A stretch of DNA of 64,000 nt, from NCBI RefSeq assembly GCF_004138165.1, contig NZ_RYFF01000001.1:310001-374000 (forward strand). Reading direction: 5' to 3'. The notes beneath the pieces are model-generated. The model searched no databases and was not told where the DNA came from. It saw nothing but the letters and a program-made list of their open reading frames with translations. The DNA is from Candidatus Chloroploca sp. Khr17. Lineage in GTDB: Bacteria > Chloroflexota > Chloroflexia > Chloroflexales > Chloroflexaceae. Below, piece by piece: positions 11,138 to 13,788 of the stretch; within the stretch, counting starts at the first letter, position 1, and every line of letters starts with the position of its first letter. A program made the translations under genes and the position numbers.

Positions 11138-11629
11138 ATGAATGCTAACTCCTTTCGTCATTTTTATAACTATCACTTCGCTGAAAACCGCAAGCTATGG
11201 GATGACTGCATCACGTCGCTTCCTTATGAGCAGTTCACCCAGGCGGTAGACTACTCGCATGGATCTGTGCGGGCGCACATTCTGCATCTCATCAGCGTAG
11301 ATGATATCTGGTTCAGCGAACTATGCAACATCGAACCCTGCGAACCGCTGCCACCCGCGCACGGTGATGATCGAACCATCATACGCACGTATTGGGATCA
11401 GGTTGAGCAGCGCATGCGCGCATATCTGACCGTCTTGCAGGACGAGATGTTGTTTGAGACACCGATCAGCGAACCGGAAGAAGACAAAGACCTTCTGGTG
11501 TGGCAAGTGCTGCTCCATGTAGTCAATCATGGCACGGATCATCGCGCCCAGATGCTCAGGTTACTCAACGATCTAGGCGTGAAGACGACGTCACAAGACT
11601 ATATTTTCTATGTCTATGATAATCCGTAG
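11138..11629 (+). CDS. DinB-family metal-dependent protein
   Basis: A 163-residue four-helix-bundle protein of the DinB/YfiT-like type. Characteristic features are FxxYHFxENRKLWD at the N-terminus, a histidine-bearing helix HGSVRAHILHLISVDDIWF (50-68) and the C-terminal metal-ligand helix NHGTDHRAQMLRLL. Family members are thiol-dependent transferases or stress proteins of mostly unknown substrate. It is followed immediately by the promoter at 11644 and the IscB element. Confidence 0.9.
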   Translation: MNANSFRHFYNYHFAENRKLWDDCITSLPYEQFTQAVDYSHGSVRAHILHLISVDDIWFSELCNIEPCEPLPPAHGDDRTIIRTYWDQVEQRMRAYLTVLQDEMLFETPISEPEEDKDLLVWQVLLHVVNHGTDHRAQMLRLLNDLGVKTTSQDYIFYVYDNP

Positions 11630-11643
11630 TTGCCTTTTGGGGC

Positions 11644-11672
11644 TTGTATTTTAAGAACATATATCCTATAAT
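11644..11672 (+). promoter_or_regulatory. sigma-70-type promoter reading into the omegaRNA
   Basis: TTGTAT (11644-11649), 17-bp spacer, perfect -10 TATAAT (11667-11672). The predicted start near 11679 gives a transcript that runs over the left flank of the IscB element and through the omegaRNA. TAGGAG at 11711-11716 downstream looks like a ribosome binding site with no start codon behind it. It probably once served the VOC gene now at 13339. Confidence 0.7.
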
Positions 11673-11724
11673 TGGTTATTGTGACCGAAGCTATAGCGGC
11701 AACATAACCGTAGGAGATCAAGGT

Positions 11725-11975
11725 AAGTCAGTAACCCACGGCTGAAGCGCGTGGGCTTGTGGAGCAATCCGTAAGCCCGTACTGACCAGACCGAGTCCCG
11801 TTTGGGGGACTACGCCCGCCGGGTCATGACACCTACGGATGCGTGTGCCAGTCCGTAGCCCTGTCGCTCGTCATCACGCCGTCCTGGGGCAAGGGACGCA
11901 GGTGGCGGGCAGGACAAGCCCGGTGGGCATGGTCGAGGCACCCATTACCCCCGCGAGGGGAGCAGGAGTAATCCG
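11725..11975 (+). ncRNA. omegaRNA (HEARO RNA) of IscB
   Basis: About 250 bases without a reading frame, directly upstream of iscB where HEARO/omegaRNAs lie. Visible pairings: P1 GTCAGTA (11727-11733) with TACTGAC (11780-11786); inside it the hairpin CCCACG/CGTGGG; AGTCCC (11794-11799) with GGGACT (11806-11811); CTACGGA (11833-11839) with TCCGTAG (11852-11858); long-range GCCCGCC (11814-11820) with GGCGGGC (11904-11910); and a final stem CCCC-GCGA-GGGG (11949-11960) closed by ATTAC (11944-11948) with GTAAT (11968-11972). The guide would be the flank just 5' of the element, about 11709-11726. Family knowledge, not this sequence, says that the guide is 5'. Confidence 0.75.
11944..11972 (+). promoter_or_regulatory. 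iscB RBS inside the last omegaRNA stem
   Basis: AGGAG (11964-11968) lies four to eleven bases before the iscB ATG (11976). It is partly enclosed by the stem ATTAC/GTAAT with an inner GNRA-capped CCCC/GGGG helix. Folding of the omegaRNA could limit translation of its own nuclease. Confidence 0.5.
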
Positions 11976-13277
11976 ATGTCATTGGTGTTTGTGCTGAGTA
12001 GCGACCGGCAGCCGCTTGACCCGTGCCATCCAGCGCGGGCCAGACAGTTGCTTACGCGCGGGAAGGCGGCGATCTTCCGCAGATTCCCGTTCACGATCAT
12101 CCTGACCGACCGCACGGCAGCGGAGCGCGTGACCCACCCGCATCGCGTGAAGATCGATCCCGGCTCCAAGACCACGGGAATCGCTGTGGTGGCTGAGGGA
12201 ACGGGCCGCGTGGTGTGGGCGGGGGAACTGACCCATCGCGGTCAGCAGATCCGCGACCGGCTCTCCCAGCGGCGGGCCGTGCGCCGTTCCCGGCGGCAGC
12301 GGAAGACCCGCTATCGCCAACCGCGCTTCCTGAACCGGCGTCGGCCCGAGGGTTGGCTGGCTCCAAGCCTTCAGCACCGCGTCGAGACGACCCTGACCTG
12401 GGTGAACCGGCTGCGCCGGTACGCTCCCATCGCGGCCCTAAGCGTCGAACTGGTCAGGTTCGACACCCAACAGATGCAGAACGCCGAAGTCAGCGGCGTA
12501 GCCTACCAGCAGGGCACGCTGGCCGGATACGAAGTCCGGCAGTACCTCTTGGAAAAGTGGAACCGCCGCTGTGCATACTGTCATGCCACGGACGTGCCGC
12601 TGCAGATCGAACACATGACCCCGCGCTCACGGGGCGGGTCAGATCGGGTCAGCAACCTCACCCTGGCGTGTGAACCGTGCAACACCCGCAAGGGGACGCA
12701 GACGGCGGCGGAGTTCGGATACCCGCACCTTCAGGCCCAGGCTCGCCTCCCGTTGAAGGATGCCGCCGCAGTCAACAGCACCCGTTGGGCGCTGTCCCAG
12801 CGGCTCGTCGCCACCTGCCTACCCGTAGAAGCCGGGACGGGCGGGCGCACAACGTTCAACCGCACGCGCCTGGGACTGCCCAAAGGCCACTGGATGGATG
12901 CGGCATGTGTGGGAGCCAGTACCCCCGAGGCGCTCGACACGCGCGGGGTACGCCCGCTCCTGATCCGGGCCACCGGCCACGGGTCACGCCAGATGTGCCG
13001 GATGGATCGCTTCGGCTTCCCGCGTACTGGCGCGAAACAGGCCCGCCGCGTCAAGGGGCTTCGTACCGGCGATATGGTCAGGGCCGTGGTCACGACCGGG
13101 AAGAAGGTCGGTACCTACACGGGTCGCGTCGCCGTGCGGGCCAGCGGGAGTTTCAACATCACCACCGCGAACCGCACCGTGCAGGGTCTTTCCTATCGGT
13201 TCGTTCGCGCCATCCAGCGGAACGATGGCTATACGTATCAGCCCCAGCCTGTGCCAGCGCACGCTGAAGCGGGCTGA
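11976..13277 (+). CDS. iscB: RNA-guided DNA endonuclease IscB
   Basis: A 433-residue protein with the full IscB domain order. The PLMP-type N-terminus (1-45) has a PLDP variant (QPLDPCHPARARQLLTRGKA). RuvC-I is KIDPGSKTTGIAVV with D61. The arginine-rich bridge helix is at 99-117. RuvC-II has E158 in ALSVELVRFD. The HNH domain (about 195-245) has CAYC (199-202), catalytic EHMTP with H213, and CEPC (232-235). RuvC-III is GHWMDAACVG with H305 and D308. A C-terminal domain (about 340-430) of the target- and RNA-contacting type follows. Both nuclease centres look intact, so double-strand cutting is expected. Length and order exclude Cas9 (no REC lobe) and TnpB (HNH present). GC is higher than in neighbouring genes. 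RBS AGGAG is at 11964-11968. Confidence 0.93.
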   Translation: MSLVFVLSSDRQPLDPCHPARARQLLTRGKAAIFRRFPFTIILTDRTAAERVTHPHRVKIDPGSKTTGIAVVAEGTGRVVWAGELTHRGQQIRDRLSQRRAVRRSRRQRKTRYRQPRFLNRRRPEGWLAPSLQHRVETTLTWVNRLRRYAPIAALSVELVRFDTQQMQNAEVSGVAYQQGTLAGYEVRQYLLEKWNRRCAYCHATDVPLQIEHMTPRSRGGSDRVSNLTLACEPCNTRKGTQTAAEFGYPHLQAQARLPLKDAAAVNSTRWALSQRLVATCLPVEAGTGGRTTFNRTRLGLPKGHWMDAACVGASTPEALDTRGVRPLLIRATGHGSRQMCRMDRFGFPRTGAKQARRVKGLRTGDMVRAVVTTGKKVGTYTGRVAVRASGSFNITTANRTVQGLSYRFVRAIQRNDGYTYQPQPVPAHAEAG

Positions 13278-13291
13278 AGCAGGGCGCTCCT

Positions 13292-13312
13292 CCCAGGGCT
13301 GAAGCGCCTGGG
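13292..13312 (+). repeat. right-end subterminal hairpin of the IscB element
   Basis: CCCAGG (13292-13297), loop GCTGAAGCG, CCTGGG (13307-13312). The loop is identical to that of the left-end hairpin at 11741-11749, which ties both ends to one element. Confidence 0.75.
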
Positions 13313-13338
13313 TCTCCGCGCCTGAAGGCAAGCATTCT

Positions 13339-13788
13339 ATGACCACGTCATCCTCAGTAGCAGTGTGCCTTTGGTACGATAGCAACGCGGAAGAAGCGGC
13401 ACGGTTCTACACGTCGTTGCTTCCAAATTCAGCGATCTTGAGTGTTTCGCCCGTCATGGTGACGTTCACGCTTGACGGAGTGCCATTTCAAGCGTTGAAC
13501 GGTGGGCCGCAGTTCAAACCTACCGAGGCTGCTTCTATCGCAGTGACCACCAAAGATCAACAAGAGACCGATTATCTCTGGAGCGCACTTACAGCCGATG
13601 GCGGCGAAGAAGGCCAGTGCGCCTGGCTGAAAGACCGCTTTGGCGTATCTTGGCAAATTGTTCCGCAGATCTTGCCAAAGCTCTTGGGCTCGCCAGACAG
13701 GCAAGCAGCCAATCGAGCAATGGAGGCAATGTTGCAGATGAGCAAGATCGACATTGAAACCCTCGAATCTGCATTCAAGGGTGCATGA
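13339..13788 (+). CDS. VOC-superfamily (PhnB/glyoxalase-like) protein
   Basis: A 149-residue vicinal-oxygen-chelate protein of the PhnB / 3-demethylubiquinone-methyltransferase-like group. Typical features are CLWYDSNAEEAARFYTSLLP at the start, FQALNGGPQFKPTEAASIAV in the middle, and the C-terminal segment GGEEGQCAWLKDRFGVSWQI. The function within the group is not predictable. The family start matches the ATG at 13339. The gene lies directly behind the IscB element: only a weak GAAGG (13324-13328) serves as RBS now, while a good promoter and RBS sit on the other side of the element (11644-11716), so expression may be altered. Confidence 0.88.
   Translation: MTTSSSVAVCLWYDSNAEEAARFYTSLLPNSAILSVSPVMVTFTLDGVPFQALNGGPQFKPTEAASIAVTTKDQQETDYLWSALTADGGEEGQCAWLKDRFGVSWQIVPQILPKLLGSPDRQAANRAMEAMLQMSKIDIETLESAFKGA

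What the first reader, a model, noticed from the sequence alone, without database searches (positions are those of the whole stretch)
11725..13338. Intact IscB RNA-guided nuclease locus with a well-folded omegaRNA
The 433-residue protein keeps D61, E158, H305/D308 (RuvC) and H213 (HNH), both CxxC pairs, a bridge helix and a PLMP-type N-terminus. About 250 bases upstream lack a gene but fold into at least five paired elements, including a P1 stem that closes exactly at the element's left end. Both ends have subterminal hairpins with the same loop GCTGAAGCG. IscB proteins with HEARO/omegaRNA are known; this one comes from a phototrophic Chloroflexota lineage and has a PLDP variant. Domain calls are read from sequence; activity is inferred.
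Basis: partly seen in the sequence, partly recalled or inferred. Interest (0 to 1): 0.85.

Follow-up and report, generated by a model that had tools for sequence, protein, structure and literature searches.

The report
IscB transposon at a start codon
This is a complete 1,612-base mobile element that carries the Cas9-like RNA-guided nuclease IscB and its guide RNA; the element is of a known kind, but it and its relatives repeatedly sit exactly between a bacterial gene's ribosome-binding site and its start codon.

Summary
Window 11727-11948 is a HEARO/omegaRNA (Rfam RF02033, 134.7 bits against a cut-off of 83) and 11976-13277 is an intact IscB gene (NCBIfam guided_IscB, 463.5 bits). All cited catalytic and zinc residues are invariant in 20 relatives. 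The empty site occurs in both sister genomes of the genus and fixes the element at exactly 11727-13338, 1,612 bp, with no target duplication. It lies between ATCAAGGTAA and ATGACC. This is the only HEARO and the only IscB in a 6.4-Mb genome, and close relatives are common in Oscillochloris-type Chloroflexota, so it is a new member of a known kind. The same placement recurs: 17 of 23 curated right ends abut a start codon (hemE, pnp, the photosynthetic reaction-centre gene, argJ), against about 17% of non-genic RTGA sites in the window. Of 132 HEARO insertions, 54 have a Shine-Dalgarno core just outside the left end, against 13-22 in control positions. The putative guide is therefore the host gene's leader, and its likely promoter is the host gene's own. 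Nuclease activity, guide use and transcription are inferred.

The parts
11727..13338 (+). whole mobile element, 1612 bp, no target duplication
   Evidence: empty site in G002 and G001: window flank 11625-11726 is joined directly to 13339 onward
11727..11948 (+). HEARO / omegaRNA scaffold; its P1 stem starts at the element's first base
   Evidence: Rfam RF02033, 134.7 bits; folding z-score -2.97
11711..11726 (+). putative 16-nt guide (host DNA, 5'UTR of the downstream gene; contains its Shine-Dalgarno AGGAG at 11712-11716)
   Evidence: position 5' of HEARO as in known IscB/HEARO RNAs whose 5' spacer was reprogrammed (PMC9755519); only perfect match in own genome is this flank
11644..11672 (+). 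possible host promoter (TTGTAT, 17 nt, TATAAT) that would start the guide-bearing transcript; weak
   Evidence: read from sequence, with similar sequence at the empty sites of G001 and G002; did not pass the consensus scan
11735..11755 (+). left subterminal hairpin, loop GCTGAAGCG, overlaps a HEARO stem
   Evidence: pattern search of own genome
11964..11968 (+). ribosome-binding site of iscB (AGGAG, 7 nt before ATG)
   Evidence: sequence
11976..13277 (+). iscB: PLMP(PLDP)-type N-terminus, RuvC-I, bridge helix, RuvC-II, HNH, RuvC-III, C-terminal TAM-interacting region
   Evidence: NF040563 463.5 bits; RRXRR PF14239 251 bits, HNH PF01844; Foldseek to IscB 8csz E 9.8e-27
13292..13312 (+). right subterminal hairpin with the same loop GCTGAAGCG
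13320..13338 (+). terminal motif GCCTGAAGGCAAGCATTCT; also present at the ends of TnpB elements in the same genome
13339..13342 (+). ATGA: predicted TAM / insertion tetranucleotide, and start codon of the next gene
   Evidence: empty-site alignment; right ends of relatives are followed by ATGA/GTGA
13339..13788 (+). host gene split from its ribosome-binding site (PF06983, VOC/PhnB-like, 149 aa)
   Evidence: Pfam; ~95% identical DNA in the two sister genomes

Best explanation
This is an intact, non-autonomous IS200/IS605-type element carrying IscB and its omegaRNA. Shown: exact ends, seamless insertion before ATGA, a full HEARO RNA, an IscB with all catalytic residues, and an empty allele in two sister genomes. 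Inferred: a Y1 transposase acting in trans moves it as single-stranded DNA using the end hairpins and the TCAT/ATGA site. Inferred: transcription from the host gene's promoter runs through the last bases of that gene's leader into HEARO, so the 5' guide matches the empty site. Inferred: IscB then cuts an empty allele (guide followed by ATGA), and repair from the occupied copy keeps the element. The occupied site is safe because HEARO's GTCAG replaces ATGA after the guide match. The element and its relatives settle preferentially between a gene's Shine-Dalgarno and its start codon, which puts them under a host promoter.
For: HEARO hit; family, structure-relative and fold evidence; catalytic residues invariant in 20 relatives; exact empty sites in G001 and G002; hairpins at both ends; the guide's only exact genomic match is the protected flank. 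Start-codon placement: 17/23 curated right ends, 14/19 when only ends defined by a motif shared between copies are used, against 17% of non-genic RTGA sites in the window. Shine-Dalgarno core at -18..-4 of the left boundary in 54/132 insertions against 13-22/132 at six shifted controls, with no peak for the reverse complement. Downstream genes verified as URO-D, PNPase, reaction-centre, BFN and ArgJ.
Against: No transcript, guide, cleavage or transposition data. The three TnpA-like genes in the own genome (two good, one weak) show no end resembling this element's in the stretches fetched, so the mobilising transposase is unidentified. The candidate promoter did not pass the consensus scan. Part of the start-codon enrichment could be survivor bias after loss of insertions inside genes; the gene model behind the 17% control is crude.
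Confidence: 0.85

Rival explanations
1. It is an IscB element as described, but the start-codon position carries no meaning: the transposase needs TCAT/ATGA, insertions inside genes are purged, and ATGA is common at starts.
For: TnpB elements in the same and related genomes share the end and the ATGA site and also sit at start codons (4 of 8 independent sites), so no IscB-specific cause is needed.
Against: Only about 17% of non-genic RTGA sites in the window are start codons, against 14/19 to 17/23 observed; some copies sit before ATGC or ATGG that are still start codons (L043, L045).
Confidence: 0.45
2. A domesticated or regulatory IscB: the host keeps it to use its guide on the downstream gene's leader, for example as a repressor.
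For: The guide equals the leader of the neighbouring gene; single copy in the genome.
Against: All nuclease residues are intact; the element is absent from both sister genomes, so it is a recent insertion and not conserved at this place; both ends are intact.
Confidence: 0.04
3. A dead element: intact by sequence but never transcribed or no longer mobile for lack of a matching transposase.
For: No matching TnpA end was seen in the draft genome; promoter evidence is weak.
Against: Intact reading frame, RNA and ends; recent insertion relative to two sister genomes.
Confidence: 0.25

Closest known systems
IscB/HEARO OMEGA systems (Rfam RF02033; NCBIfam NF040563; KraIscB-1, OgeuIscB)
   Same: HEARO RNA directly upstream of the IscB gene, guide position outside the left end, RuvC+HNH+bridge helix+PLMP, TAM on the right flank
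   Different: 433 aa, PLDP instead of PLMP as in its Chloroflexota clade; predicted TAM RTGA instead of the NTAAA or NWRRNA-type TAMs of characterised IscBs (PMC13180657)
IsrB (DtIsrB, PDB 8dmb)
   Same: similar core fold (target-normalised TM 0.68); reported NTGA TAM (PMC9581776) resembles the RTGA predicted here
   Different: IsrB lacks HNH; this protein has an intact HNH with both CxxC pairs
IS200/IS605 TnpB-only elements in the same genome
   Same: share the terminal motif GCCTRAAGGCAAGCATTC and the ATGA/TCAT site
   Different: encode TnpB on the other strand, with no HEARO detected

Membership tests
IscB (OMEGA RNA-guided nuclease) | matches the IscB family model with RuvC I-III split by bridge helix and HNH | tested here: met
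   NF040563 463.5 bits vs cut-off 175; RRXRR and HNH; Foldseek best hits all IscB/IsrB
IscB (OMEGA RNA-guided nuclease) | intact catalytic residues | tested here: met
   D61, E158, H213, H305, D308 invariant in 20 relatives
IscB (OMEGA RNA-guided nuclease) | PLMP-type N-terminal domain | tested here: met
   N-terminal strands and helix in the model; motif reads PLDP, as in most close relatives
HEARO / omegaRNA | covariance match to RF02033 directly upstream of the ORF | tested here: met
   134.7 bits, positions 1-211 of 211
IscB (OMEGA RNA-guided nuclease) | RNA-guided DNA cleavage with a TAM | not testable with these tools
   TAM RTGA is only inferred from right flanks
IS200/IS605-type mobile element | seamless insertion next to a fixed short site, no target duplication | tested here: met
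   two empty sites; copies of the same end in other genomes precede ATGA/GTGA
IS200/IS605-type mobile element | subterminal hairpins at both ends | tested here: met
   11735-11755 and 13292-13312
IS200/IS605-type mobile element | a Y1 transposase that acts on these ends | tested here: inconclusive
   no TnpA in the element; three TnpA-like genes elsewhere in the genome show no matching ends

The most novel reading that the evidence does not exclude
HEARO/IscB elements of Chloroflexota (and their IscB-less mini-forms) are start-codon specialists. They insert between Shine-Dalgarno and start codon, borrow the host gene's promoter to make a guide that is that gene's own leader, and some carry a substitute ribosome-binding site in their right end, so that even essential genes tolerate them and the nuclease homes to start codons of the same gene in other cells.
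Probability: 0.3. Interest if true: 0.65.

Novelty: new member of a known kind. Interest (0 to 1): 0.4.

Why it matters
The element adds a compact, complete IscB with a predicted RTGA TAM and a natural target known from two empty alleles, so its guide and target are defined by nature and directly testable. If the start-codon placement holds up, it bears on how a guide RNA whose guide lies outside the element gets a promoter, and on how nuclease-bearing transposons persist next to essential genes without killing their hosts.

Tried and rejected
Built-in ribosome-binding site as a general rule: strong Shine-Dalgarno complementarity is present in some right ends (L035, L068, L071; L246 and L046 moderately) but the window's right end (-3.7 kcal/mol) is near the random median of -2.6, against -7.3 for the native leader, so the claim is kept only as part of the novel case. 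Automated right-end detection by pairwise alignment ends was noisy: 20 of 76 ends were start-like, against 14% for random positions; it was replaced by curated ends for closely related copies. Matching ends around the TnpA genes of the own genome: none found. Further IscB copies in the own genome: only weak HNH-only matches. The literature library held no report of start-codon insertion of these elements; the original HEARO paper is not held. From memory only, that paper noted ATGA/GTGA right of HEARO elements.

Full report
What was checked. The reported ORF is intact at 11976-13277 and matches the NCBIfam equivalog for IscB at 463.5 bits (cut-off 175) and Pfam RRXRR plus HNH. The RNA upstream matches Rfam HEARO over its full length at 11727-11948 with 134.7 bits; the family cut-off is 83 and this was the only gathering-level hit in 64 kb. 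Its folding energy is 3 standard deviations below dinucleotide shuffles. A model built from that alignment (mean pLDDT 74.7) finds IscB and IsrB structures as its ten best matches. TbaIscB is the nearest solved sequence.

Exact ends from empty sites. Two genomes of the same genus (handles G001 and G002) carry the two neighbouring genes without the element. In both, the base matching window 11726 is followed directly by the base matching 13339. The element is therefore 11727-13338, 1612 bp, inserted without target duplication or loss between ATCAAGGTAA and ATGACC. Both ends carry a hairpin with the loop GCTGAAGCG (11735-11755 and 13292-13312), the only two exact matches to that pattern in the genome. 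The genome has one HEARO and one IscB.

Mobilisation. The last 18 bases of the element (allowing A or G at one position, and at most one further mismatch) occur at four other places in the genome and in relatives. Those inspected in the own and closest genomes border TnpB genes on the opposite strand and are followed by ATGA. One transposase probably moves both kinds of element, but the TnpA-like genes found show no such ends in the stretches fetched, so it is unidentified. The HEARO family is frequent in the phylum: 39 of 400 Chloroflexota genomes and 11 of 41 of the family, including about 420-bp copies with HEARO and right end but no IscB.

Start-codon placement. In the window the ATGA that abuts the right end is the start codon of a 149-aa gene (PF06983), and its Shine-Dalgarno AGGAG (11712-11716) now lies 1.6 kb upstream, just outside the left end. 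Relatives repeat this. Curated right ends abut the first codon of genes whose products match uroporphyrinogen decarboxylase, PNPase, the photosynthetic reaction-centre protein, bifunctional nuclease and ArgJ. In total 17 of 23 curated ends open a reading frame of at least 60 codons; with only ends defined by a motif shared between copies it is 14 of 19. For comparison, 29% of random ATGA/GTGA/ATGG sites open such a frame, and about 17% of non-genic RTGA sites in the window are start codons by a crude gene model. An independent test uses only the left boundary: among 132 HEARO insertions, 54 have a Shine-Dalgarno core 4-18 bases outside the element, against 13-22 at six shifted windows; the reverse complement shows no peak. 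Limits: copies are not fully independent, five of the 23 ends were placed by eye, and survivor bias may explain part of the excess.

How it most likely works. By analogy with characterised IscB/HEARO systems, whose 5' spacer is the guide (PMC9755519), the guide here is the host sequence ending at 11726. That is the leader of the downstream gene, so transcription must begin in host DNA. A TTGTAT-17-TATAAT pair at 11644-11672 is a candidate promoter, but it failed the consensus scan and is weak evidence. The guide followed by ATGA is exactly the empty allele. In the occupied allele the guide match is followed by GTCAG, which protects it. The guide has no other match in the genome at fewer than two mismatches. 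Cleavage of empty alleles and repair from the occupied one would maintain the element. These functional steps are inference; the anatomy is shown.

Membership and novelty. Every sequence-level defining feature of IscB and HEARO that could be tested is met. The predicted RTGA TAM resembles the NTGA TAM of the nickase IsrB (PMC9581776) more than the NTAAA or NWRRNA-type TAMs quoted for OrufIscB and OgeuIscB (PMC13180657). The PLDP spelling is the norm in its clade. The element is a new member of a known kind. The recurrent start-codon placement was not found in the held literature, but the founding HEARO paper is not held, and from memory it noted ATGA/GTGA next to HEARO elements, so novelty of that point is uncertain.

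Noticed in passing
L006 about 1998-2204 (sister genome G002, between the DinB-like gene and the empty site): The sister genome has about 206 extra bases upstream of the empty site, with the palindromic repeat GGGGCACCCCTTGCGGGTGCCCC, apparently a different small insertion.
   Followed up: no
L102, L103, L116 (G002, G001, G000): A TnpB element with the same end as the IscB element sits at what looks like the same chromosomal place in all three genomes of the genus, so at least one relative of this element is vertically kept.
   Followed up: partly
L192, L216, L232, L240 (G304): In one Chloroflexota genome four HEARO elements end in AAAGGA just upstream of ATGGC, that is with a near-perfect ribosome-binding site next to a likely start codon.
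   Followed up: partly
L033/L246 and L042: Mini HEARO elements inserted at an ATGA that is both the stop of the upstream gene (hemB-like in L033) and the start of the next; the left end supplies a new stop codon a few codons later.
   Followed up: partly
L109, L115, L117, L119 (G045): TnpB elements of another family share the terminal motif with one change (CATCC) but are followed by GTAAA instead of ATGA: the target site has shifted while the end is conserved.
   Followed up: no
L026, L033, L036, L039, L042, L043, L045, L046: IscB-less copies of about 380-440 bp that keep HEARO and the right end, as if served in trans by IscB elements elsewhere.
   Followed up: partly
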